From Pectinatus brassicae (GTDB taxonomy: Bacteria; Bacillota; Negativicutes; Selenomonadales; Selenomonadaceae): a stretch of 64,000 nt of DNA. The stretch is taken from assembly GCF_014201835.1 (NCBI RefSeq), contig NZ_JACHFH010000013.1, positions 1-64,000 of the forward strand, read 5' to 3'. The notes under the pieces are model-generated. The model was not told the DNA's origin. It ran no database searches and saw nothing but the letters and a program-made list of their open reading frames with translations. This document shows, piece after piece, positions 1,614 to 26,817 of the stretch. The first letter of the stretch is position 1; every line of letters starts with the position of its first letter. The position numbers and the translations under genes are program-made.

Positions 1614-3203
1614 TTAATTGGTAAGGAGATCATATGCAACAGATAATTTTCTAAATGCGGTGCTAAGTTGTTGCTCGTTAGGTTGTCGTTCAAGGGAATA
1701 AAGAATATATGAACGAACATCATTTAAATTAAACCTCTGTATATAACGACATACCGTAGCATCTTTTTTTTGAATAGTGTCATTTGCAGACATAATGGAG
1801 GTAATCGTTGCTTGTAAGTCAGTACTTATTAAAGTTCCAGGGTGTGATATTATATTGGCAATTGTATCAGTTAAAGGTAATCTTTTTAATAAGCGAGTTT
1901 TTTCGAATGTTTCCAATTCGCTATTTTCAATATTTGTTTGTGTTAAGTATTTTAACTTTGGATAATTCCCATTTAATGTTAATATGAATCTTAAGGCTAT
2001 AGTAATATCTATCTCTTTATTAGTAACGTAATCTTTAATATAGTTTTTGAGTGTGGGGATTGTGATTTCTGTTTCTTTCCCTACAGACACGACCCAGTTT
2101 TGACTACATAGTTCTTCTGGATCAGTAGGTAAGTCTTTTATTCCCATAAAAATTTTATCTAAAGAACCTTTTTGCCCCTTAGTAACAATTAAGTCTTTGA
2201 TAACATGTTGATATCTTCTGAGTTCTATTGGAGTTACGCCTTGATCGATTTCTGCTAATTTATTATATATGCTGGAATAATTATTTGTTTTTATAAGTGT
2301 GAAAAAACATTGAAAATCATCTGAAAAGATAACATTTTCATGGATGTTATCTCCGGCTGATTCATCATATTGAATAATAATGAGTTTTTGCCGTAGTTGT
2401 GTTTTTTCGTGATTACCTAATGACGATATGAATGATTTTAAAATATGACGAATATTTTCATCGGTAAGGGAGTATCCTAAAAATATAATCGGAGAATGTA
2501 GCATTTCTGAAATTATTTTTGCACTAATCAGAACAGAGTGTTTTTCAAATGTTAAATAATCATCTTTGGTGAGTACCAATGAATTTGGTTCAGAAATACA
2601 TCCATGTATTTTAAATAGTTCGGCATAACCAAGAGTTGCTTGGAAAAGTCCATTTTGGCCAATATACGTAGCAATAGAATGGTTATTTTGGTTATATGAA
2701 GTCTCAATAAAATTATCATAATTTGTTGTAAAAATAAGTCGAGTTTTAAGAAGAAGTTTTTGAAAAGCCTCTAATTCTGTTTGTATAGTTGGTTCATTTT
2801 TTATTTGTAGTCGCGAAAAGTTATTTGATAAATATTTCTTAAATGGAGAAAGGTTTTCTCTAAAAGCCATTTCTTGTGATAATCCATCAATAGGGAGTTT
2901 TTCATCAAAAAATAGATTATCGATATTTTTACCGATAATTTGTGCAGCTTCAGTATTTAGTTCAAAGCGAAGAGCATCTTCTTGTAATGTAGGTTTTTTA
3001 GTTAATATATCTTTTTTTAATTTATTTAATTCTGCGAAAAAATCATGACCATCACTCTGGAGTTTCCAAAGGGCATTCAGTAATTCTTCCCAAGAGGGAT
3101 AGTCCACAATATATCTTTTGGATAGTCCTGCGCCGATAAATAAAATAGGGAATTCATTTGCGTCTCTCAATATATCAAATATGGATACTTCACTTGTACT
3201 CAA
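1614..3203 (-). CDS. SIR2-family protein, probable antiphage NADase
   Basis: 529 residues. The N-terminal half is a SIR2-like NAD-binding domain: FIGAGLS near residue 22, the FTTNYDNFIE motif near 160, KIHGC near 198 and IFLGYSLTDENI near 240. These follow the SIR2_2 layout found in bacterial defence proteins that hydrolyse NAD+ upon phage infection (DSR, ThsA and similar). The C-terminal 200 residues match nothing I recognise and may be a sensor. Start is TTG at 3203, preceded by AAGGGG ten bases upstream. No HerA or TIR partner is adjacent, so it would act alone. It lies between an integrase and the att site, a usual cargo position. The SIR2 fold is clear; the defence role is inferred. Confidence 0.8.
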   Translation of the reverse strand: MSTSEVSIFDILRDANEFPILFIGAGLSKRYIVDYPSWEELLNALWKLQSDGHDFFAELNKLKKDILTKKPTLQEDALRFELNTEAAQIIGKNIDNLFFDEKLPIDGLSQEMAFRENLSPFKKYLSNNFSRLQIKNEPTIQTELEAFQKLLLKTRLIFTTNYDNFIETSYNQNNHSIATYIGQNGLFQATLGYAELFKIHGCISEPNSLVLTKDDYLTFEKHSVLISAKIISEMLHSPIIFLGYSLTDENIRHILKSFISSLGNHEKTQLRQKLIIIQYDESAGDNIHENVIFSDDFQCFFTLIKTNNYSSIYNKLAEIDQGVTPIELRRYQHVIKDLIVTKGQKGSLDKIFMGIKDLPTDPEELCSQNWVVSVGKETEITIPTLKNYIKDYVTNKEIDITIALRFILTLNGNYPKLKYLTQTNIENSELETFEKTRLLKRLPLTDTIANIISHPGTLISTDLQATITSIMSANDTIQKKDATVCRYIQRFNLNDVRSYILYSLERQPNEQQLSTAFRKLSVAYDLLTN

Positions 3204-3299
3204 GATAATACATCCCCTTAAGATAGTTTGTTTTCATTATACTGTTAAAAGGTGCAATTTGTCTCTTAGATAATTAGAATATTTTATTAAATAAGTTTT

Positions 3300-3376: not shown

Positions 3377-3423
3377 TGGAGCTGGCAATAGGAATTGAAC
3401 CTACGACCTGATCATTACGAATG
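3377..3423 (-). repeat. att site: duplicated 3' part of tRNA-Thr
   Basis: 47 bases identical to 26742-26788, the 3' part of tRNA-Thr(CGU) from the anticodon arm to the encoded CCA. The copies diverge after GAATG. This is the direct repeat expected at the far end of an element integrated into the tRNA gene. It serves as the right end of the left element and the left end of the right element. Confidence 0.88.
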
Positions 3424-3536: not shown

Positions 3537-3560
3537 ATAAGGGACAAATAAGGGACAAAA
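3537..3560. repeat. arm-type recombinase sites, left end of right element
   Basis: Two direct AAGGGACAA copies (3539-3547, 3550-3558) with 11-base period. The surrounding 24 bases are identical to 26659-26682 next to the integrase. Their place on both ends of the element, flanking the core repeats, fits arm binding sites for the integrase at 25453. Confidence 0.6.
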
Positions 3561-15346: not shown

Positions 15347-15350
15347 AATT

Positions 15351-15442
15351 ATGTCCAAATGTCATGGATGTCCAGTAAAAATAGGGTGTATATAGTGGTT
15401 AAATATATTTATACACCCTAAAATCATTGGACATTAGGACAT
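15351..15442 (+). repeat. nested inverted repeat module A, upstream of the small gene at 15469
   Basis: Outer arms: ATGTCCAAATGTC begins at 15351 (arm region to 15373), against GGACATTAGGACAT at 15429-15442. Inner arms TAGGGTGTATA (15382-15392) and TATACACCCTA (15410-15420) are perfect. The right outer arm ends about ten bases before the ribosome site of the next gene. The outer arm contains ATGTCATGGATGTCC, related to the repeats of modules B and C. Confidence 0.7.
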
Positions 15443-15468
15443 AAAAAATGAAAGTAGGGATTTATATT

Positions 15469-15693
15469 ATGAGTATATCAATTTGTTTAGCATATAATGA
15501 TTTGCAGCTTATCTTGGCTGATGATAATGGTAATTTAAATATAAATTTACAGGGAAAGCATATTAATATCAATTTTATATTAAATCCAATGCAGGCTAAG
15601 ATCCTGGCAGAAAATACAGCAATCATGACAAATAAATTACCAGTATCAGTAAAAGATGAAAATGGTAACCTAGAAACCATATTTAAAAAATAA
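15469..15693 (+). CDS. small hypothetical protein
   Basis: 74 residues from ATG 15469, chosen because AGTAGGG lies nine bases upstream; the in-frame ATG at 15448 has no ribosome site. The sequence (MSISICLAYNDLQLIL, NLNINLQGKHININF, NPMQAKILAENTAIM) has no motif I recognise and no membrane segment. It follows the nested inverted repeat A and lies between the DUF932 and AAA ATPase genes, so it probably belongs to the element's replication/recombination region. Confidence 0.6.
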   Translation: MSISICLAYNDLQLILADDNGNLNINLQGKHININFILNPMQAKILAENTAIMTNKLPVSVKDENGNLETIFKK

Positions 15694-15786
15694 AATATAA
15701 TAAAAATATTACGTTTATATATAAATATAAGTATATATAGGATATAATATACAGTAATGATAATTGTAAACGAAAGGGGTATAGAT

Positions 15787-16968
15787 ATGCTGCCTAATCC
15801 ATATCGACCAGGTGCTGGTATGACACCTGCCTATTTAGCAGGTCGTGAAGAAACTATAAATGAAGCACAAAGCATTTTAAAATCAGTAAGTGTTGGTTTT
15901 GCTGTTCGTTCAGTAATTTATTATGGATTGCGAGGGGTTGGTAAAACAGTTTTATTAAATCATATTGAAAATATGGCTAATGAAATGGATTTGCCATCAG
16001 AATACATGGAAATATCTGAACGAGGCTATTCGTTTGGACAACATCTTATCTTGCATGTATCTAAATTGATAAATAAACTTAGTATAAAAGAAAATATTAC
16101 CAGTCATGCTAAAAAAGCATTATCTATATTAAAAGCCTTTTCATTAAAGTATTCCTATGGGGATGATATTTCTATTGAAATTGGTCCTAATATAAATCCG
16201 GCTACTGGGATATCTGATACTGGGGATCTAGCTAATGATATGACAGAATTATTTTTAGCATTAGGAAATATTGCTCAAAAAGAAGAAAAGGGTGCAGTTA
16301 TTTTTATTGATGAGATTCAATACATGAAAAGCAATGAATTTGAAGCTTTAATGGCTGCATTACATCGGATAAATCAAAAAGGTTATCCATTAGTTATATT
16401 TGCCGCTGGATTACCCAAGATAGCAAAAATAGCTGGTGATGTAAAATCTTATGCGGAAAGATTATTTTCTTTTATAGAAATAGATTCATTACTACCTAAA
16501 GAAGCAATAGCCGCCCTAATAGAACCAGCTAAACGTTTGAATATAAGCTATGCTGATGATGCATTGCAGGAAGTTATAGCAATTACCGAAGGATATCCAT
16601 ATTTTCTGCAAGAATATGGAAAATGGATATGGGAAAGCAATAATGATGCTAAAATTATTACTAAAGCTGTTGTAAAAAATGCCTATGAAAAGTTTGAGCA
16701 AAGTCTTGATGCATCGTTTTTTAAAGTACGACATGATAGAGCAACGCCAAGAGAAATAGAATTTATGACGGCAATGGTTAAATGTGATAATCTTCCTTGT
16801 ACCACAAAAGAGATAGCGGCTATAATGCAGGAAACCACACAATCCATATCACCGCTTAGGGCGCAGCTTATCCATAAAGGCTTTATATATGCAGCAGAAC
16901 GTGGAACAGTAGATTTTACTGTTCTACAATTTGATAAATATTTAAAACGGGTTCATGCTATAGATTAA
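15787..16968 (+). CDS. AAA-type ATPase of the mobile element
   Basis: 393 residues from ATG 15787, chosen because GAAAGGGG lies eight bases upstream; the earlier ATG (15757) lacks such a site. An AAA_16/Orc-like ATPase: LAGREETINEA, Walker A YYGLRGVGKTVLL (about residue 55), Walker B AVIFIDEIQYM (about 175), sensor-like IFAAGLPKIAK, arginine-finger region SYAERLFSF, then a winged-helix C-terminus (TPREIEFMTAMVK to LIHKGFIYAAERGTVDFT). Such ATPases load or move on nucleic acid; related standalone copies are common in phages and integrative elements. Partner unknown. Confidence 0.8.
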   Translation: MLPNPYRPGAGMTPAYLAGREETINEAQSILKSVSVGFAVRSVIYYGLRGVGKTVLLNHIENMANEMDLPSEYMEISERGYSFGQHLILHVSKLINKLSIKENITSHAKKALSILKAFSLKYSYGDDISIEIGPNINPATGISDTGDLANDMTELFLALGNIAQKEEKGAVIFIDEIQYMKSNEFEALMAALHRINQKGYPLVIFAAGLPKIAKIAGDVKSYAERLFSFIEIDSLLPKEAIAALIEPAKRLNISYADDALQEVIAITEGYPYFLQEYGKWIWESNNDAKIITKAVVKNAYEKFEQSLDASFFKVRHDRATPREIEFMTAMVKCDNLPCTTKEIAAIMQETTQSISPLRAQLIHKGFIYAAERGTVDFTVLQFDKYLKRVHAID

Positions 16969-17151
16969 TAATAGTTAAGATTATTATTAACTTATATTTG
17001 CTTTATTTAATTAAAATTTTATGGTACTTAAATAATTAAGCTTAGTATTAAATGAATAAATTATATAATTGCTAAATTAATCCCCCTTATGTCAGTATAA
17101 AATTGACGCAAGGGGAATTTATGTACTGTCAATAAATTGTCTGGCATTATC

Positions 17152-17199
17152 TTAAAATTGACCATTACTGAAAAAATATTCAGTAATGGTCAATTTTAA
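17152..17199. terminator. long perfect stem-loop between ATPase and XRE genes
   Basis: A 21-bp perfect inverted repeat (17152-17172 with 17179-17199) around six A/T bases; the arm contains AATTGACCATTACTGAA. It can end transcription in both directions. The rest of 16969-17245 holds a weaker hairpin (CCCCTT at about 17083 with AAGGGG at about 17110) and AT-rich DNA, no gene. Confidence 0.55.
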
Positions 17200-17245
17200 T
17201 TTATGAAAAAACTGTCATAATGATAAAGGAAAGGAGTATTACACC

Positions 17246-17470
17246 ATGGCTATACATATTGACAATAAACTTTTAGGGATAAAAATATCATATTACAGAA
17301 AACGTAAGGGGTATACTCAATATCAATTGGCAGAGCGTATAAATATTAGTCAAAGCTATATGGCAAAAATTGAATGTGGCTTCTTATCTAACTGTGTATC
17401 ATTGGGTGTATTAAACAATATAGCTAATGAACTTGAGGTTAGTATAGATAAGTTAATAAGTTTAGATTAA
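17246..17470 (+). CDS. XRE-family transcriptional regulator
   Basis: 74-residue Cro/C1-type helix-turn-helix protein that is little more than the DNA-binding domain: LLGIKISYYRKRKGYTQYQLAERINISQSYMAKIE, with the recognition helix SQSYMAKIE. AAAGGAG precedes ATG by about ten bases. It is the only small repressor-like gene in the right element and the natural candidate for a regulator of its promoters, but its targets are unknown. Three small genes follow on the same strand. Confidence 0.85.
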   Translation: MAIHIDNKLLGIKISYYRKRKGYTQYQLAERINISQSYMAKIECGFLSNCVSLGVLNNIANELEVSIDKLISLD

Positions 17471-17487
17471 ATCAAGGAGGAAAAAGA

Positions 17488-17616
17488 ATGTCAGACAAAA
17501 GGAATGATGGAGAAATCATGGGGCCATTAAAGCGAAGCTGGCCTATTTATAAAAATTTATTTAAAGTACTTCCAATAATTGTTTATAGATTTATAAAAGA
17601 AAAATTATCAAAATAA
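17488..17616 (+). CDS. small basic hypothetical protein
   Basis: 42 residues from ATG with AAGGAGG eight bases upstream: MSDKRNDGEIMGPLKRSW, then a hydrophobic helix LFKVLPIIVYRFI and a basic tail. It sits 17 bases after the XRE gene and 18 bases before the membrane protein, so the genes are probably one operon. No known family; the strong ribosome site supports translation. Confidence 0.6.
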   Translation: MSDKRNDGEIMGPLKRSWPIYKNLFKVLPIIVYRFIKEKLSK

Positions 17617-17634
17617 AAGTAGGGAGGATTTTTA

Positions 17635-18000
17635 ATGTTTCATTTGCCGGATTCTTTGGTTAGTATTATATATTTTATAGCAGTTCCAATATTAGGTATT
17701 GCTGGCACATACAGTTATATGAAATCTCATACTATAATATCTAATGGGCCAGAAGGTGAAGCAAAGGGATGTTTTAGTGTATTCTTGAGCTTTCTAATTG
17801 GAGCTGTAATTTTAGTTACAATTATATTAAAAATTATAGAAATGGGAATAGGTTTTTTAATTAGTCATTGGATTATATTTTTGATAGGTATAGTAATAAT
17901 TGTAATCTTAGGGATAATTGGTTTGCGAAAAGTAGGTGATGAAGTAGAAGAAAATGATGATCGGTCAGAAAGGCTAGAGGATAAAAAAGATGATGAATAA
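17635..18000 (+). CDS. small membrane protein
   Basis: 121 residues with GGGAGG before ATG. Three hydrophobic segments: LVSIIYFIAVPILGIAG (about 6-24), FLSFLIGAVILVTIILKII (about 47-66) and WIIFLIGIVIIVILGIIGL (about 78-98), then a charged tail EEVEENDDRSERLEDKKDDE-like in character. It overlaps the next gene (lipoprotein) by 11 bases, which implies coupled translation and a joint envelope role. No family recognised. Confidence 0.7.
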   Translation: MFHLPDSLVSIIYFIAVPILGIAGTYSYMKSHTIISNGPEGEAKGCFSVFLSFLIGAVILVTIILKIIEMGIGFLISHWIIFLIGIVIIVILGIIGLRKVGDEVEENDDRSERLEDKKDDE

Positions 18001-18571
18001 TACAAAAAAAATGTTGATGTCAATAATGTGCCTACTTTTAATACTACTAACATTAGGGTGTGGCATGTCAAAAGATGAAAAACAAAAGGATTTAGAGCAT
18101 AAGATAGTTGCACTTAAAATTGCACTAGAAATGTATCTTGTTCCGAACTATTATGGTTTTACAAATAACTATACAGATAAAGCACTTCCGAGTAATGAAA
18201 GAAGTGAAGTTAATAAACAGATACAGGGAGCCGAAAAATCATTAGAAGATCTTAATAAGATTAATTTAATGTTTCATGGAAGTAAAACAATAAAGTTAGA
18301 TGATAATAACGATGATGAAAAGAAAAGAGAATTTGATGCAATTTGTAAAGACTATGATAATGCTCAGATAAAATTACAAGAAATGATAAAAATAAAAATG
18401 ATGTTTATGAAAAAACTCTTGGAGAATAATCCTAAATTAACGCAAAATGAAAAAACTCAAGGAGAAAAATTAAAATTATTAATGAAAGAATATGATCAAT
18501 CCATGAAATCTGGAGATATGAAATTAAAGAACATGGTAAAAAAGTATAATATTTCATTACATGGAATGTAA
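17990..18571 (+). CDS. predicted lipoprotein
   Basis: 193 residues. The signal sequence (KKMLMSIMCLLLILLTLGCG) ends in Leu-Gly-Cys, a slightly atypical lipobox with Thr at -3. The mature part is highly charged and mostly helical (KLQEMIKIKMMFMKKL, EKTQGEKLKLLMKEY). It is coupled to the membrane protein before it. Lipoproteins of phages and satellites often block superinfection, but nothing in the sequence proves this here. Terminator at 18608. Confidence 0.7.
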   Translation: MMNNTKKMLMSIMCLLLILLTLGCGMSKDEKQKDLEHKIVALKIALEMYLVPNYYGFTNNYTDKALPSNERSEVNKQIQGAEKSLEDLNKINLMFHGSKTIKLDDNNDDEKKREFDAICKDYDNAQIKLQEMIKIKMMFMKKLLENNPKLTQNEKTQGEKLKLLMKEYDQSMKSGDMKLKNMVKKYNISLHGM

Positions 18572-18607
18572 GTAGCCGGTCATTTAATAAAATACATTAT
18601 TAGTATA

Positions 18608-18643
18608 ATCGCAGGGAATTATTTTTCCCTGCGATTTATTTTT
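18608..18643 (+). terminator. intrinsic terminator after the lipoprotein gene
   Basis: ATCGCAGGGAA pairs with TTCCCTGCGAT, followed by a T-rich tail. The 336-base gap 18572-18907 otherwise contains inverted repeat module B and AT-rich DNA. Confidence 0.8.
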
Positions 18644-18704
18644 ATTTATAACCAGTAAATTGCTATTAATAATATATATAGGGATATTATTAATAAATTA
18701 ATGC

Positions 18705-18800
18705 ATGTCAGATTGTCATGTCTGTCACGCAAAAATAAAGTATAATTATAGTTTTTTAATTGATTTTATATACTATAAAATTGACTGACAGTCATGACAT
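18705..18800 (+). repeat. nested inverted repeat module B, upstream of the nuclease gene
   Basis: The left arm (18705-18727) ends TGTCATGTCTGTCA; the right arm (18786-18800) reads TGACAGTCATGACAT, 58 bases away. Between them lie TATAAT (18741-18746) and short arms AGTATA (18739-18744) with TATACT (18769-18774). The left arm matches module C at 20 of 23 positions, so they are one repeat family. Confidence 0.7.
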
Positions 18801-18907
18801 AAGTGATAAGAGAAATATTTTTATTAACTCAATAAGAATTATAAGGGAATAATTATAAAAATAATAGTTTGAATAAAATATTTATGTAAAAAGAAAGGAA
18901 TAAAATT

Positions 18908-19801
18908 ATGCCAGCAGTATATTTTGTTTGTCCTGACAATAGAAAAGTACCAATAGTGTCATGCCTTAATAATTGTCCACATAAAGAACGTTGTATGTTT
19001 TTGCCTACACTTCGGTCAATAGCGATATCTTCGGATAGAAAGTTATCAAAGCCTAGTGTGACAGAACTTATTGCGGGAACAAGGGAAACATATTTAAAAC
19101 GGACGACAGATTATGCTATTGATCCATTTGATAGCTTATTTGCACTACATGGACAAGCTGTCCATTATATGAATTATAAAAAACAGGGAGATAATATTCT
19201 AGGAGAAGTACGGATGGAAGATGAAATAACCACTGGACAATTTGATATGTTTGGCTATGTATTGAATGATAAAAAATTGACATTAGGAGATTTAAAAGTT
19301 ACTTCCAGCTATAAATTAATGAAAGCATTAGGGATATATAAAAAAGATGTTCCAACTGGTGAAGTATATAAAAGTGGGGTTAAAAAAGGAATGCCTAAAT
19401 ATAAGAAAGAAACTAGCTTTGACGGTGTCAGGCATGTCATGGATTGGGCATTACAACTAAATTATTATAGAATGCTGTTAGAAGATAATGGTTATGACGT
19501 AAATGACATGGTCATACAGGCATTTTGTCGAGATTTTAGTACCAGGGTAGCAATGGAGCGAAATATAGACAGGCCGCTTTATATTATAAAAATAAATAGA
19601 ATCAGTGATAGGTGGTTACAACGATATTTTTCTTATAAAGCACAAAATTTAAAAGAAGCCTTGAATAATAATGATATTCCACCAGTATGCACAGCCAAAG
19701 AACGTTGGTATGACAGAAAATGTTTGGGGTTTTGCAATGTAGCAGATAAATGTCCATATGCACAAGTATTAAAACAACAGCAAGAAAAATTGGCTATGTA
19801 G
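18908..19801 (+). CDS. RecB/Cas4-like PD-(D/E)XK nuclease
   Basis: 297 residues. N-terminal cysteines (CPDNRK, CLNNCPHKERC) and C-terminal cysteines (CTAKERW, KCLGFCNVADKC) could hold a metal or Fe-S cluster as in Cas4/AddB-type nucleases. The nuclease core shows LHGQAVHY (His), GQFDMFGYV (Asp) and LGDLKVTSSYK (Asp-x-Lys). Gene order nuclease then ERF resembles phage exonuclease/annealase pairs, where the nuclease resects ends and the annealing protein coats the ssDNA. No Cas genes or CRISPR array are present, so a role in adaptation is not suggested. Assignment by motifs; activity inferred. Confidence 0.75.
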   Translation: MPAVYFVCPDNRKVPIVSCLNNCPHKERCMFLPTLRSIAISSDRKLSKPSVTELIAGTRETYLKRTTDYAIDPFDSLFALHGQAVHYMNYKKQGDNILGEVRMEDEITTGQFDMFGYVLNDKKLTLGDLKVTSSYKLMKALGIYKKDVPTGEVYKSGVKKGMPKYKKETSFDGVRHVMDWALQLNYYRMLLEDNGYDVNDMVIQAFCRDFSTRVAMERNIDRPLYIIKINRISDRWLQRYFSYKAQNLKEALNNNDIPPVCTAKERWYDRKCLGFCNVADKCPYAQVLKQQQEKLAM

Positions 19802-19811
19802 GAGATATAAA

Positions 19812-19892
19812 ATGGATAATAAATGGTGGTCGATAGTAATTATTATTGCAGAAGTAATAATAGCAGCAATAAAAGATGAAAAGAAAGATTAA
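19812..19892 (+). CDS. very small membrane peptide
   Basis: 26 codons, MDNKWWSIVIIIAEVIIA then a charged tail, with TAGGAG seven bases upstream, ten bases after the nuclease gene. One membrane helix. Not in any family I know; translation is suggested by the ribosome site and by the immediate terminator. Confidence 0.45.
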   Translation: MDNKWWSIVIIIAEVIIAAIKDEKKD

Positions 19893-19893
19893 T

Positions 19894-19927
19894 AGCCATA
19901 TAGTAAAAAGCTATATGGCTGTATTTA
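19894..19927 (+). terminator. intrinsic terminator after the nuclease operon
   Basis: AGCCATATAG (19894-19903) pairs with CTATATGGCT (19911-19920), followed by GTATTTAT. Confidence 0.7.
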
Positions 19928-19956
19928 TATCATAGCAATAACATAATATATTGATT

Positions 19957-20061
19957 ATGTCAGGATGGCATGTCTGTCAGCTTAGAATAATAGGTATGTA
20001 TACCTATTATAAAGTTAAACCTATAGTACTAAACAGTGTGACAGACATGACATCCTGACAT
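19957..20061 (+). repeat. nested inverted repeat module C, upstream of the ERF gene
   Basis: 23-base arms at 19957-19979 and 20039-20061 match at 22 of 23 positions when inverted; the core is ATGTCATGTCTGTCA. Inside is a 20-base palindrome, AATAGGTAT GT ATACCTATT (19989-20008). The right arm ends ten bases before the ribosome site of the ERF gene. Confidence 0.8.
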
Positions 20062-20085
20062 TTTAAAATGAAAGGACAACCTATT

Positions 20086-20685
20086 ATGCAAAAATTAGCT
20101 AAAAAACTTATTGAGGTTATGGAAGAATGCGCCTATGTTACTAAAAATGGAGTTAATAATTTTCATAAATATAAATATGCAACCAGTGCTGATGTATTAG
20201 AAAAGGTAAATACAGCGATGGTTAAACATGGGGTTTGTACAATTGCTATACCAGAAATAATAAGTGTTGATGAGATTACTACAGCTAAAGGTAATATTGA
20301 ACGACTAGCTACGGTAAAAATAAATATTACTTTTATAGATAAAGATTCTGAAGACACTATTACGATAACAGGCTTAGGTTCAGGACAAGACGCAGGTGAC
20401 AAAGCTGTCATGAAAGCTCAAACAGCAGCAATAAAATATGCGTACATGTTGTCATTTGCTATTGCAACTGGGGATGATCCTGAAGCTGATGGTAAAACCG
20501 ATCAAACTAATATTGTACAAGTTAAAAATACACCAAAGAAAAACCCTATAGGTAATAAAACGGTAAAAGCAGCTTGTGTTGAATGTGGAATAGTATTATC
20601 TGATAAGGTGAAAACGTATTCTCTAGAAAAATATGGTCGATGTCTTTGCATAGAATGTCAGAAAAATATTAAAGTGAGTGCATAA
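20086..20685 (+). CDS. ERF-family single-strand annealing protein
   Basis: 199 residues from ATG 20086; AAAGGA ten bases upstream makes this start better than the in-frame ATG at 20068, which has none. The ERF domain fills residues 1-130: VMEECAYVTKNG, FHKYKYATSADVLEKVN, GVCTIAIPEI, and GLGSGQDAGDKAVMKAQTAAIKYAYMLSF-type block. A C-terminal zinc-ribbon-like CVECG...CLCIEC follows, as in other ERF proteins. ERF proteins bind ssDNA and anneal complementary strands, circularising or recombining phage genomes. It pairs logically with the nuclease gene before it. Confidence 0.88.
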   Translation: MQKLAKKLIEVMEECAYVTKNGVNNFHKYKYATSADVLEKVNTAMVKHGVCTIAIPEIISVDEITTAKGNIERLATVKINITFIDKDSEDTITITGLGSGQDAGDKAVMKAQTAAIKYAYMLSFAIATGDDPEADGKTDQTNIVQVKNTPKKNPIGNKTVKAACVECGIVLSDKVKTYSLEKYGRCLCIECQKNIKVSA

Positions 20686-20731
20686 TCATATAAAACAGTA
20701 TTTTCTTTGTATTAAAAGATGTGCTGAAAAA

Positions 20732-20875
20732 AACGTCCAAAAATAAAATATAGATAGCATGTTAAATAATAACTTTTTTGGTAAAATTATAGTAATATCA
20801 TATTATGAAGCTTACCTGTATAAATTTTAAATATTAATGAACGACTAATAAATTAATATTTAATTTTTGGACGTT
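20732..20875 (+). repeat. nested inverted repeat module D, upstream of the 528-residue gene
   Basis: 19-base arms at 20732-20750 (AACGTCCAAAAATAAAATA) and 20857-20875 match at 18 of 19 positions. Inner arms TAAATATTAAT (20828-20838) and ATTAATATTTA (20852-20862) are perfect. The layout is like modules A-C but the sequence differs and the arms are farther apart (106 bases). Confidence 0.65.
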
Positions 20876-20899: not shown

Positions 20900-22486
20900 A
20901 TGAAATTATCTAGTGAAGATATTGATAAATTACTTGATTTTATTATAAAAAATAGAATTTCTAGTAAATTAATAAGAACAGTTCAAAGTTTTTGGGAAAA
21001 TCATAAGTTTATGTGTCAACGTGTTATAGTAAATAAAAAATTTTATAATGATAAAGAAAAGTGTGCATATAATAGATATGATTTTGGAAGTGATTTTAAA
21101 TATGGACAATATAAAAAATCTGATTTGGTAAAAGAAATAATTGGTTTTCATAGATTGGAAGAAAATCAACCTATTTCTGAAACTTTAGATTATCAAGCAA
21201 TATTTAAAAATGGTTTTGCCAATAAAATATATAATTTGTACAATATACAAAAATTAACATATACAACTGAAAATGATTCTATAAAACCGGATGAAATTTT
21301 GCCATTTAATCTTATTAATAAGCTTTATTCAGATAATGCAATAAAGCAAGAAGTAGTTGAAAAACTAATCATTTATTGTAAGCTGATTAAATTCTTTTAT
21401 AAGAAAAAACAAGATGGTATTTCTTTATTTACTAAGGATGGTTCAGATTTAAGTAAAGAAGGCTATTCTATTCTTATTAATAAATTAATACCATTGTTAT
21501 ATAAAGAAATTGATCCGAGCTTAGTAGTATATGAAATGTCATTAAATAATATGGTAGATATAATGCTTAATTGCTATAAAAATTTTTATGATTTTGCTTT
21601 ATATACAAAACGAATTGATAATAACACATTATTTATAGATATTACTCAAATTATGAACATGCTTAAAGAAATTGATTCAATAATGTATAAAAAATATAAT
21701 ATGATAAATAAAAGGTTCAATACCAATTCTAAAATGACATATATTCCTTTAAAAATAACAGAAGCAGAAAAAACGTATATATCAACGAAATTAATTGTCT
21801 ATCGGCATGTTAATAAATGTCATAAGGAAGCGTTTAATATTTTTCTGGAAGTTATAAATAAATATAAAGATGTAGAAAGAGAGATATATAGCAAGATTGT
21901 TAGTATCTCCGATGATGAAAAAATTCATATAAAGGATGATAGTGAACGTGTTATTAAATATATTTTTCATTATTATAGATCATTTTTTGAAGATTATTTT
22001 TCACAATATAAATCTAGAGACTTAAGAACGCCTGTTTTTCGTACTATACAGTGGATACGTTATATATATGGGGGAAATAAGGAGAGCTTTAAAGTAAAAT
22101 ACTTATTACTTTATTTAAGAATATTTTTATTTGTAAAAAAAGAAATTCCTGATTTTGATGTTTTTTATGTCTTGGGACAATTAAAGAAAATATATAGTAA
22201 TTCTAATAATAACTGCAATTATAATATATCTGAAAAAGATTTTTATCTTCTTAATATATTAAATGTTTTTGCTATAGAATCAACTTCACCTGGAATGGGA
22301 AAGTTAGCAGAATCTTATTATCGTGGGCTTAGTTATGAAAATGAAATAAAGGAAATAATATATAAAGATATCTATACATATTTTAATGCTGCATCTGTAT
22401 TACATTTCTTTATAGAACCAATAGTAACGTTGGATAATACATTTGTTGAATACTATAAGGATAGAATTGAGGCAAGTTATTTATAA
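20900..22486 (+). CDS. unrecognised 528-residue protein
   Basis: Start ATG 20900 with TAGGAG ten bases upstream; the frame is open further back to a TTG inside repeat D, which is not a credible start. The protein is rich in Lys, Asn, Ile and Tyr and looks all-helical. No Walker, nuclease, methylase or helix-turn-helix motif and no signal peptide is seen. A conserved-looking block is ESTSPGMGKLAESYYRGLSYE near residue 465. It stands alone between repeat D and a strong terminator. The low-GC composition and isolated operon suit a cargo gene, perhaps a defence or abortive-infection protein, but this is a guess. Confidence 0.7.
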   Translation: MKLSSEDIDKLLDFIIKNRISSKLIRTVQSFWENHKFMCQRVIVNKKFYNDKEKCAYNRYDFGSDFKYGQYKKSDLVKEIIGFHRLEENQPISETLDYQAIFKNGFANKIYNLYNIQKLTYTTENDSIKPDEILPFNLINKLYSDNAIKQEVVEKLIIYCKLIKFFYKKKQDGISLFTKDGSDLSKEGYSILINKLIPLLYKEIDPSLVVYEMSLNNMVDIMLNCYKNFYDFALYTKRIDNNTLFIDITQIMNMLKEIDSIMYKKYNMINKRFNTNSKMTYIPLKITEAEKTYISTKLIVYRHVNKCHKEAFNIFLEVINKYKDVEREIYSKIVSISDDEKIHIKDDSERVIKYIFHYYRSFFEDYFSQYKSRDLRTPVFRTIQWIRYIYGGNKESFKVKYLLLYLRIFLFVKKEIPDFDVFYVLGQLKKIYSNSNNNCNYNISEKDFYLLNILNVFAIESTSPGMGKLAESYYRGLSYENEIKEIIYKDIYTYFNAASVLHFFIEPIVTLDNTFVEYYKDRIEASYL

Positions 22487-22668: not shown

Positions 22669-24552
22669 ATGCTAGAAAACATATTTCCGCATGGTCTAAA
22701 AAAAAGTCTACCCAATAAGCTGGAGTCCCCAAAATTAGCAGATTGCAAGCTACTGTGTAATTACGCATTAGGCGATTTTACCTTGGAAAGTGAAAGTTCG
22801 ATAGGTGATTTCTTGGGTACGGTATTAAACAACAAGAAGAGTAATGAAAAAATTACTGACAAAACTACCATTATTGATGTGACGGGGGCCCCTCTAGGTA
22901 TTCCCAATAAACAACAGGTAAATATAGGTTCCTTACAAGAGAATATTACACCGAAGCTATTGTTCGAAGGGCATATCGAAATTTGCGAAAATCAGGTTGT
23001 ACACGAGCTTGATGGCAGTACTGTTAGAAGTTATGTGGTACAGGTATCTAATAACCGAGGCGTAATAAAAAAAGTTGATATACGGGAAAAAGAATATAGT
23101 CAAAAAGCATTTGCAATAATACAAAGCGAGTGCCCGGAAATTGTATTTAACTCTGCTGTTAAAAATAGCTATGCAATAATGCGTGATCACATGTCGAGGT
23201 TGCTTAGTGAAAAAATACAATATTTGCCGGAAAAGCATTTGTATAAAGCGAGTGGTTGGACAAAACTAAGTGGTACATGGCGTTATATGCATGGTGGTAT
23301 GCCCAATGTGCATGCTGGACGAAAATTAGAAGAGGTAAGGAATATTAATGAAGCCTTTGGAAGATTTTTTACCTTGTCAAAAAATTTATTAAAACCAGGT
23401 CAGGAAGAGGAAAATTACCTAATATTTTTGCATTCGCATATAGGTTATTTGAGTCGGATACTAGAAGAAGCAAGATTTCCAGTACATTATATCTTATTTC
23501 TTAAGGGAAAAACTAACACAGGAAAAACTAGTTTATTATCGGAATTAAGCGGCGAAATTATGTACGAAAAACCGCCGATGGCTAGGCTCGAGGACACTAA
23601 ATCATATCTAGAGGGTGTGATTGCTGAAATGCAGGATAGTTTGCTTTTAGTGGATGATGCCCACCCATCTCCTACGTTGCAAGGGGAGCGCGAAATAAAA
23701 GCCAATATAGAAACGATTGTTCGCGCTTATGGCGATAGTCAAACAAGAGGTAAACGTGGAGCTGATCGGCAAAAATTAGAAAAAACTAAAATCTCAGGTG
23801 CAGTATGGATGACTGGTGAATATCTTCATTTGGCAGCTCAGAGTTCGGTTTTACGAGTATTAGAAATTACCCTGAATGATAATGCAGTTAATAGGGATAC
23901 CCTGACGATTTTGCAGCAAAATAAGGATATAGCGCGCCAGTATTACTCTGGCTACATTTACTTCATTGAAGCTAACTTCGAAAAATTAGTGAGATATTTT
24001 TTTGATACACAGTATAGTATGCGAAAAAAATGGGCAGATTTGCTGAAAACAGATATTGCAAGAACAGTTGATATTGCGGTATGCCTAGAGTTTATAAGTT
24101 ATTCCATTGTAGAATATGCAAAATATTCCCAGCAAAATATAAGCAATTGGTGTACGCAGGTAGAACAGGCTATTCAATTATATCTGATTAATAAGGTAAT
24201 GATTGATAAAAAAGCGGATCCGATTTTTGTCTTCAAGCGTATGGTTCGTGAATTGTATGATGCCGGTGAATTAAGATTAGCACCGAATAAAGATGTTTTT
24301 CGTAATAATATGGAGTACATTGGATATATTGAATCTTCTATAATGTATATTATTAATGCCAAATTAGCGAAGAATATAAAAAATAAATGTTTAGAAAATG
24401 GGATAGCATATTTACCGCCCAAAGTGCCTACTTTGTACGCCGAAGGTCTATTAGCGTCAGATAAAGTGAAGAGATTTTCACTTTATCGTGTAGATAACAG
24501 TCGGCCAACTATGGTGGAAATATTTATGGATAAAATAATAAATGATGAATAA
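22669..24552 (+). CDS. DUF927-like P-loop ATPase, probable replication helicase
   Basis: 627 residues with AAGGAGG before ATG. The N-terminal 200 residues lack a clear motif. The P-loop is LFLKGKTNTGKTSLL (about residue 280); Walker B is DSLLLVDDAHPSP (about 325); then AYGDSQTRGKRGADRQK and the sensor-like SGAVWMTGEYLHLAAQSSVLR. This arrangement resembles DUF927 ATPases of phages and integrative elements, which act as replicative helicases or primase partners. It is the first gene of the last operon (with 24562, 25180), upstream of the integrase, where satellites keep their replication gene. Function inferred from motifs and position. Confidence 0.7.
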   Translation: MLENIFPHGLKKSLPNKLESPKLADCKLLCNYALGDFTLESESSIGDFLGTVLNNKKSNEKITDKTTIIDVTGAPLGIPNKQQVNIGSLQENITPKLLFEGHIEICENQVVHELDGSTVRSYVVQVSNNRGVIKKVDIREKEYSQKAFAIIQSECPEIVFNSAVKNSYAIMRDHMSRLLSEKIQYLPEKHLYKASGWTKLSGTWRYMHGGMPNVHAGRKLEEVRNINEAFGRFFTLSKNLLKPGQEEENYLIFLHSHIGYLSRILEEARFPVHYILFLKGKTNTGKTSLLSELSGEIMYEKPPMARLEDTKSYLEGVIAEMQDSLLLVDDAHPSPTLQGEREIKANIETIVRAYGDSQTRGKRGADRQKLEKTKISGAVWMTGEYLHLAAQSSVLRVLEITLNDNAVNRDTLTILQQNKDIARQYYSGYIYFIEANFEKLVRYFFDTQYSMRKKWADLLKTDIARTVDIAVCLEFISYSIVEYAKYSQQNISNWCTQVEQAIQLYLINKVMIDKKADPIFVFKRMVRELYDAGELRLAPNKDVFRNNMEYIGYIESSIMYIINAKLAKNIKNKCLENGIAYLPPKVPTLYAEGLLASDKVKRFSLYRVDNSRPTMVEIFMDKIINDE

Positions 24553-25452: not shown

Positions 25453-26622
25453 ATGCCATCAAAAATAAAAAAACGTTCTAATGGATCATATTTATTGTCA
25501 GTTGCGGTAGGATATGATGACAAAGGTAAACAAATAGTAAAGACTAAAACAGTAAAAGTTAGCAGTATGACTAAAGCTATGCAGGAATATAATGTTTTTG
25601 CAGCTGAAGTGCAAAAAGGTACGGTAGCTTATACAGGGAAATATAAATTGACAGATTTTGCAAAAACTTGGTATAACGATTACTGTTTAAAAAATTTAGC
25701 ACCAAAAACACAGCGGTCCTATAAAAATCATTTAAATAATAGGATCGTTCCGGCATTAGGGCATATTGATATGATTAAATTGAGACCGCAACATATAATA
25801 CAATTTTTAGAAGAATTGAAGAAACCTGGACTACGTTTGGACGGTAAAAAAGGAGAATTATCAGGGGAGTCTATAATGTACTGTTTTAGGGTTTTATCGT
25901 CAATGCTACAGGATGCAATGCAATGGCAAATCATTAATAATAATCCCTGTAATAGAGTAAAAGCCCCAACAGTAAAACGTCATAAATATAAATTGTTATC
26001 TGAAGAAGAAATTAAGCAAATGTTGCAGTATTTAGATGAAGAGCAACTAAAATATCGTATGATTGTTTTATTAGCTATTGATAGTGGCCTTCGATTAGGA
26101 GAATTAATGGCTCTTAAATGGTCTGATATTGATATGAAAAATAATATTTTAAATGTTACCAAAAGTAATCAGGCATTAGGAGGAAAGGGGGTTTTTACTA
26201 AATCACCTAAAAATGAAAGTTCTGTTAGGAATCTTGTTTTATCTGCAAGTATTATGGAATTACTAAAAAAATATTCACTTTGGCAGAAAGAACAAAAGTT
26301 TATGTTAGCTAATAAGTGGCATGACGAAAATTGGCTTTTTACTAAATGGGATGGACAGGCAATGTACCCAACAACACCTTCACAATGGTTTCGTAAGTTT
26401 TTAAAGCGCAAAGGATTGCCTCATATGCCTTTCCATGCCTTACGTCATTTATCAGCAACGTTACTTATATCATTGGGAATACCATTAAAAAATGTTAGTA
26501 ATCGACTAGGACATGCTGATATTCGTACTACCGCAAATATTTATAGTGAAGCTTTACAATCAGTGGATGAAAAAGCAGCTAATAAAATGGATCAATATTT
26601 TAGAAAAGTAATGAATAAATAG
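25453..26622 (+). CDS. int: tyrosine integrase of the right element
   Basis: 389 residues from ATG 25453 (MPSKIKKRSNG), chosen because GGGAGGG lies six bases upstream; the TTG-type start at 25417 falls within the terminator and has no site. N-terminal AP2-like arm-binding domain, SAM-like core-binding domain (about 60-170), then the catalytic domain: Arg in DSGLRLGELMALKW, HALRHLSAT, LGHADIRTT and Tyr in NIYSEA. It sits 120 bases from the intact tRNA-Thr and would catalyse integration and excision at the 47-bp core. Confidence 0.93.
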   Translation: MPSKIKKRSNGSYLLSVAVGYDDKGKQIVKTKTVKVSSMTKAMQEYNVFAAEVQKGTVAYTGKYKLTDFAKTWYNDYCLKNLAPKTQRSYKNHLNNRIVPALGHIDMIKLRPQHIIQFLEELKKPGLRLDGKKGELSGESIMYCFRVLSSMLQDAMQWQIINNNPCNRVKAPTVKRHKYKLLSEEEIKQMLQYLDEEQLKYRMIVLLAIDSGLRLGELMALKWSDIDMKNNILNVTKSNQALGGKGVFTKSPKNESSVRNLVLSASIMELLKKYSLWQKEQKFMLANKWHDENWLFTKWDGQAMYPTTPSQWFRKFLKRKGLPHMPFHALRHLSATLLISLGIPLKNVSNRLGHADIRTTANIYSEALQSVDEKAANKMDQYFRKVMNK

Positions 26623-26658: not shown

Positions 26659-26682
26659 ATAAGGGACAAATAAGGGACAAAA
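26659..26682. repeat. arm-type recombinase sites, right end of right element
   Basis: Two AAGGGACAA copies (26661-26669, 26672-26680) in a 24-base stretch identical to 3537-3560 at the other end of the element, 62 bases from the att core. Confidence 0.6.
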
Positions 26683-26741: not shown

Positions 26742-26817
26742 TGGAGCTGGCAATAGGAATTGAACCTACGACCTGATCATTACGAATGACCTGCTCTGCC
26801 AACTGAGCTATGCCAGC
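26742..26817 (-). tRNA. tRNA-Thr (CGU)
   Basis: The 76-base minus-strand sequence folds as a cloverleaf: acceptor GCTGGCA with TGCCAGC, D arm GCTCAGTTGGCAGAGC, anticodon stem GGTCA/TGATC with loop TTCGTAA (anticodon CGT, reading ACG), T arm with GGTTCAATTCC, and encoded CCA. Its 3' 47 bases are the integration core. Confidence 0.93.

What the first reader, a model, noticed from the sequence alone, without database searches (positions are those of the whole stretch)
15351..20875. A family of nested inverted repeats precedes the recombination genes of the right element
Four gene starts (15469, 18908, 20086, 20900) are preceded by an outer inverted repeat (14-23 bases per arm) with a second, inner inverted repeat inside. 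In three of them (A, B, C) the arms share the core ATGTCATGTCTGTCA or a close variant and lie 55-59 bases apart. C has 22 of 23 bases matching between arms and 20 of 23 shared with the left arm of B. In A, C and D the right arm ends about ten bases before the ribosome site. Constant spacing and kept pairing suggest paired binding sites for an element-coded regulator (such as the XRE protein at 17246) looping DNA, or a structured 5' leader RNA that controls translation. I know of no described motif like this.
Basis: partly seen in the sequence, partly recalled or inferred. Interest (0 to 1): 0.75.

Follow-up and report, generated by a model that had tools for sequence, protein, structure and literature searches.

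The report
Iteron modules of a mobile island
The repeats are real: they are mirrored sets of a 5-base motif (TGTCA/TGTCC), most likely docking sites for a mobile island's own replication protein, and similar mirrored sets occur beside replication-helicase genes in many phages and islands, which helps to locate where such elements start copying themselves.

Summary
The outer inverted repeats A-D are real and far beyond chance; the inner repeat is supported only in A and C. Each arm of A, B and C is a short array of TGTC[C/A] pentamers 8 and 9 bases apart (C has one degenerate copy), and the two arrays face each other across 55-59 AT-rich bases. In the closest relative the 14-base cores and the 59-base spacing are exact, while the sequence between is unrelated. 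Spacers match within an element whether or not they would pair, so the arms are duplex-DNA iterons, not an RNA stem. The XRE protein does not track the arrays. Presence and motif track the island's primase/helicase-like protein (22669-24552): TGTCC-type arrays occur with two clades of it and not with the third, whose elements carry TTTCACC or CGAAAAA arrays when any is seen. The same layout lies at the 3' end of RepA-like and D5-like helicase genes in phages and mobile elements of many phyla, as in PICI/SaPI/SCC origins. Best reading: initiator-binding iteron modules (origin-like), three or four per island, here in front of recombination genes and perhaps also acting as operators. Function is untested. 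New variant of a known kind.

The parts
15349..15444 (+). Module A: TGTC[CA] at 15352, 15360, 15369 facing [GT]GACA at 15429, 15437; 55 bases between arms; inner inverted repeat 15382-15392/15410-15420
18705..18800 (+). Module B: TGTCA at 18706, 18714, 18723 facing TGACA at 18786, 18795; loop 58 bases, 16% GC; preceded by a terminator-like hairpin at 18607-18636
19957..20061 (+). Module C: TGTCA at 19958, (TGGCA 19966), 19975 facing TGACA at 20039, 20048, 20056; loop 59 bases; inner inverted repeat 19987-19997/20000-20010; preceded by a terminator-like hairpin at 19892-19922
20732..20875 (+). Module D: outer arms 20732-20751/20856-20875, one CGTCC/GGACG per arm, 104-base loop; a doubtful member
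22669..24552 (+). Primase/helicase-like protein of 627 aa with Walker A and B motifs; candidate binder of the arrays
15469..15693 (+). 74-aa conserved small protein of the recombination cluster, behind module A
15787..16968 (+). AAA ATPase, weak match to the ORC1/CDC6 family; follows the 74-aa gene
18908..19801 (+). Phage-type exonuclease, behind module B
   Evidence: phrog_2139, 4e-21
20086..20685 (+). ERF single-strand annealing protein, behind module C
   Evidence: PF04404, 2.5e-17
20900..22486 (+). 528-aa protein of unknown function, behind module D
25453..26622 (+). Tyrosine integrase of the island
3377..3412 (.). Left att repeat (copy of the 3' part of tRNA-Thr); end of the repeat approximate
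26742..26777 (.). Right att repeat inside tRNA-Thr; end of the repeat approximate

Best explanation
Modules A, B and C (and perhaps D) are iteron modules: two convergent arrays of up to three TGTC[C/A] pentamers, 8-9 bp apart, flanking an AT-rich core of 55-59 bp. They are most likely bound in duplex DNA by the island's own primase/helicase-like replication protein (22669-24552), one oligomer on each array, which opens the AT-rich core and starts copying of the excised island, as Rep does in SaPI/PICI origins. Because B and C lie between a terminator-like hairpin and the start of a recombination gene, bound protein would also be expected to affect transcription of the ERF and exonuclease genes. 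Shown here: repeat anatomy, duplex-type conservation, and tracking of array presence and motif with clades of the primase/helicase-like protein. Inferred: binding, origin activity and any operator role.
For: (1) Pentamer periodicity, mirror-symmetric 8/9 then 9/8 in C; 9/9 in other Negativicutes. (2) In the relative G054 both 14-base cores and the 59-base spacing are exact, while the loop is 17/59 identical. (3) In a scan that assumes no motif, 18 convergent arrays against 0.4 in shuffles over 30 sequences, most of them TGTCC/TGTCA type. (4) GTCC/TGTCM clusters with clades 1-2 of the primase/helicase-like protein in 13 of 14 loci above 3.5 kb and in 0 of 9 clade-3 loci, whose arrays are TTTCACC or CGAAAAA; among loci found by that protein alone 6 of 7 against 0 of 8, Fisher p=0.0014. 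(5) Across phyla, TGTCC pairs lie within 300 bp of the 3' end of RepA-like, D5-like and Bacteroidales helicase genes in 31 of 33 cases against 2.6 expected; loops are AT-richer than the locus in 20/21 RepA and 6/6 D5 cases. (6) Phages 16-3 and RHph_X2_25, not chosen by motif, carry many TGTCACGC/GCGTGACA repeats directly 3' of a RepA-like helicase gene. (7) Published: the C-terminal domain of the D5 helicase Cch2 binds a 23-bp region with three 5-nt iterons; SaPI Rep appears to bind its iterons as two hexamers (PMC7581432); PICI origins always have two iteron sets flanking an AT-rich region (PMC6092414).
Against: The modules are not next to the 3' end of the primase/helicase-like gene (nearest, D, 1.8 kb upstream of its start), and there are three or four per island where one origin would do. 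They sit directly before gene starts, which also fits operators. No GC-skew switch was found at arrays in phage loci; the loops of the Bacteroidales group are not AT-rich. The 627-aa protein has no significant Pfam, PHROG or NCBIfam match and only a weak profile match to a D5/DUF927-like set (E=0.0017, probability 15%). Clades 1 and 2 are not sisters in the midpoint-rooted tree, the window row is a long branch, and loci L478 and L479 have weak clusters; scoring L479 as negative gives about p=0.007. L064 and L065 carry arrays without that gene.
Confidence: 0.57

Rival explanations
1. The modules are operators of a dedicated island regulator (not XRE): it binds the arrays on both sides of a promoter in the loop, loops the DNA and represses the recombination genes.
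For: B and C lie between terminator-like hairpins and gene starts. A TATAAA-like box lies at similar distance before the right arm in A, B, the G054 copy and P. haikarae (sequence). Arm spacing is kept at 55-59. Modules precede different genes in relatives.
Against: No consistent -35 box; promoter-like hits are no commoner than in shuffles (48 against 40.7, sd 6.2). In L061 and L066 a module lies between the 3' ends of two convergent genes. No small DNA-binding protein was found that tracks the arrays, and XRE does not.
Confidence: 0.22
2. Both at once: the replication protein binds the modules as operators, and only one module is the working origin, so recombination genes are switched with replication.
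For: Same evidence as the best explanation plus the placement before ERF and exonuclease genes; iteron initiators of plasmids are known to autoregulate (established knowledge).
Confidence: 0.15
3. A structured 5' leader RNA that controls translation.
For: The arms can pair (22 of 23 in C) and the right arm ends about ten bases before the ribosome site.
Against: Spacer identity in pairing register (0.61, 0.56) is hardly above out-of-register (0.55, 0.52) or same-arm (0.56) in 149 modules, all far above other elements (0.26); in G054 the outermost arm parts do not pair; no Rfam match.
Confidence: 0.03
4. Arm-type or accessory sites of the island's integrase.
For: GGGACAAATAA repeats, which contain GGACA, lie near both att sites (3537 and 26659); arrays lie near the att end in L048, L049 and L050.
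Against: Modules A-C lie about 7-12 kb from the att sites; arrays in many phages are tied to helicase genes, not integrases.
Confidence: 0.03

Closest known systems
Replication origins of SaPIs and other PICIs
   Same: Two sets of short iterons flanking an AT-rich core, in an island with its own primase/helicase-type protein (PMC6092414)
   Different: There the origin is single and directly 3' of rep; here three or four modules lie upstream, before recombination genes
SCCmec Cch2 (D5 helicase) putative origin
   Same: Three 5-nt iterons in 23 bp, the size of one arm here (PMC7581432)
   Different: The Cch2 site lies downstream of its gene with one direct-repeat set described; the sequences could not be compared
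Satellite phage P4 alpha-protein ori and crr
   Same: Initiator with primase/helicase function; repeats at two distant sites (from memory)
   Different: Different repeat sequence (from memory)
Repeat regions behind RepA-like helicases of Rhizobium phages 16-3 and RHph_X2_25
   Same: TGTCA-core repeats in both orientations, 9-10 bp apart in part
   Different: Directly 3' of the helicase gene, many more copies, unrelated helicase family

Membership tests
PICI/SaPI-type replication origin | Two iteron sets in opposite orientation | tested here: met
   A, B, C
PICI/SaPI-type replication origin | AT-rich region between the sets | tested here: met
   Loop GC 0.24, 0.16, 0.27 against 0.314 for the island; the intergenic average is 0.237, so A and C are ordinary for intergenic DNA
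PICI/SaPI-type replication origin | Located immediately 3' of the initiator gene | tested here: not met
   All modules lie upstream of 22669-24552
PICI/SaPI-type replication origin | Specific binding by the element's Rep and autonomous replication | not testable with these tools
   Needs purified protein and a plasmid assay
PICI | Characteristic PICI gene set and helper-phage induction | not tested
   int, a xis-like and a primase/helicase-like gene are present; no PICI-specific genes were sought
D5/SF3 helicase family (627-aa protein) | Significant match to a D5 or DUF5906 profile | tested here: not met
   No such Pfam, PHROG or NCBIfam match; weak hhalign E=0.0017
XRE operator pair | Occurs with XRE and is absent without it | tested here: not met
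Known structured RNA leader | Rfam match or register-specific pairing | tested here: not met

The most novel reading that the evidence does not exclude
A single class of TGTC-core, 9-bp-period, convergent iteron module is shared by the origins of several helicase families (RepA-like, D5-like, and the unnamed family seen here) across phages and mobile islands of many phyla, and in Negativicutes islands it has been multiplied so that one replication protein both starts replication and switches the recombination genes.
Probability: 0.25. Interest if true: 0.7.

Novelty: new variant of a known kind. Interest (0 to 1): 0.5.

Why it matters
If right, it gives a sequence rule for finding replication origins and initiator genes in mobile islands and phages where none is annotated, names a candidate initiator in a protein family that Pfam and PHROGs do not recognise, and suggests a direct link between replication and recombination genes in these islands.

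Tried and rejected
XRE as binder: rejected by presence/absence. RNA leader: rejected by the spacer test and Rfam. Miniature transposon: the two P. haikarae copies share flanks on both sides, so a larger region was duplicated. DnaA boxes: TTGTCCACA in one phage clade resembles an actinobacterial DnaA box (memory), but most elements have other bases after TGTCC. Promoter scan: uninformative. GC-skew switch at arrays: none. AlphaFold2 of the 627-aa protein alone: mean pLDDT 31.5, unusable, so no fold search was made. Search for relatives of that protein in viral contigs: none. Exact 14-mer in viral contigs: single hits only, scan stopped at its limit; strict inverted pattern: none. PDB profile search: nothing significant. 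Literature searches found no description of a TGTCC iteron, but subscription papers are not held.

Full report
The window lies in a Pectinatus genome (inferred: a genome placed in the same genus carries a module that matches a record titled Pectinatus haikarae MB233). The repeats sit in a genomic island inserted in tRNA-Thr, with att copies at 3377 and 26742, a tyrosine integrase at 25453-26622 and a small xis-like gene.

Observation. The core TGTC-N-TGTCTGTCA is found four times in the window, none expected, and in the whole genome every match with at most one mismatch lies in the island. The inner repeat is significant in A, in its P. haikarae counterpart and in C, but not in B, D, the G054 copy of C or other relatives.

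Anatomy. The arms are short arrays: TGTC[CA] at +0, +8 and +17 in A, B and (with one degenerate copy) C, mirrored in the right arm. In other Negativicutes elements the step is 9 and 9 and the pentamer TGTCC. In G054, whose ERF protein is 77% identical, the arms in front of ERF keep both 14-base cores and the exact 59-base spacing while the loop has 17 of 59 identical bases.

DNA or RNA. In 149 distinct modules with TGTCC-N4-TGTCC arms, the four-base spacers agree within an element whether compared in pairing register (0.61, 0.56), out of register (0.55, 0.52) or within one arm (0.56), against 0.26 between elements. A small excess in register remains (57 modules against 28). The arms are thus copies of an element-specific 9-bp unit, as for protein sites in duplex DNA. 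Two related modules lie between the 3' ends of convergent genes, where neither a leader nor a promoter is needed (L061, L066). Rfam has no match.

Distribution. The TGTCC pattern occurs in 92 stretches of viral contigs, its reversed control in 12, and in at least 119 stretches of bacterial and archaeal genomes (scan stopped at its limit). These hits are mixed and some are probably dispersed repeats. In 53 of 160 loci one of four replicative helicase or primase families is near; for RepA-like (AAA_25), D5-like (DUF5906) and Bacteroidales helicases the module lies within 300 bp of the gene's 3' end in 31 of 33 cases, 2.6 expected. All seven Negativicutes loci listed in the unbiased genome scan are in, or look like remnants of, islands like the window's.

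Which protein. XRE fails: arrays without XRE and XRE without arrays both occur. The island's 627-aa protein has Walker motifs and a weak resemblance to phage primase/helicases. Its relatives form clades; GTCC/TGTCM clusters are present in 13 of 14 loci of clades 1-2 and in none of 9 loci of clade 3, where TTTCACC (L485, L041) or CGAAAAA (L486) arrays are seen instead. Restricted to loci found by this protein alone, it is 6 of 7 against 0 of 8 (p=0.0014); counting L479 as negative, about p=0.007. L041 comes from the same genome as L491, not proven to be the same element.

Mechanism. The closest worked-out systems are SaPI/PICI origins, always two iteron sets flanking an AT-rich region 3' of rep (PMC6092414), and the SCCmec D5 helicase Cch2, whose C-terminal domain binds a 23-bp stretch with three 5-nt iterons (PMC7581432). 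Three 5-nt iterons in 23 bp implies a 9-bp step, as in the arrays here (inference from the published numbers). I therefore take A-C to be initiator-binding modules. Their number and their place before ERF, exonuclease and the AAA gene differ from known origins and leave an operator role open; B and C lie between terminator-like hairpins and gene starts. Binding, origin activity and regulation are all inferred.

Limits. The 627-aa protein has no accepted family, its structure prediction failed, skew gave no support, and the clade test rests on few independent elements.

Noticed in passing
window 17152-17199: Perfect 21-bp inverted repeat (TTAAAATTGACCATTACTGAA) upstream of the XRE gene; its right half is conserved before the 81%-identical XRE of P. 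haikarae (L043 about 3150-3245). A likely XRE operator.
   Followed up: partly
window 3537-3558 and 26659-26680: Tandem GGGACAAATAA repeats near both att sites, like integrase arm sites; three copies near the integrase remnant in L043.
   Followed up: no
window 15787-16968: AAA ATPase with a weak match to the ORC1/CDC6 replication initiation family (TIGR02928, 1.8e-10, below its cut-off); a 70% identical copy lies next to ERF in L057.
   Followed up: no
G000:C7 about 92200-95140 (L039): Second DUF932-exonuclease-ERF cluster in the same genome, about 57-66% identical, no arrays seen before the contig end.
   Followed up: partly
L043:7022-7967: In P. haikarae the exonuclease gene is split, with its second part inverted, in a decayed relative of the island.
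   Followed up: no
L316, L351, L368, L374: Prevotella UBA4217 carries the same 67-bp TGTCCCACC module on several contigs, which looks like a dispersed repeat.
   Followed up: no
L439, L444: RepA-like helicase genes in phages CRP-831 and ctjtQ328 are followed by repeats with other motifs (TTGTATAAA; GGTATCTTCGA-like), possible iterons.
   Followed up: no
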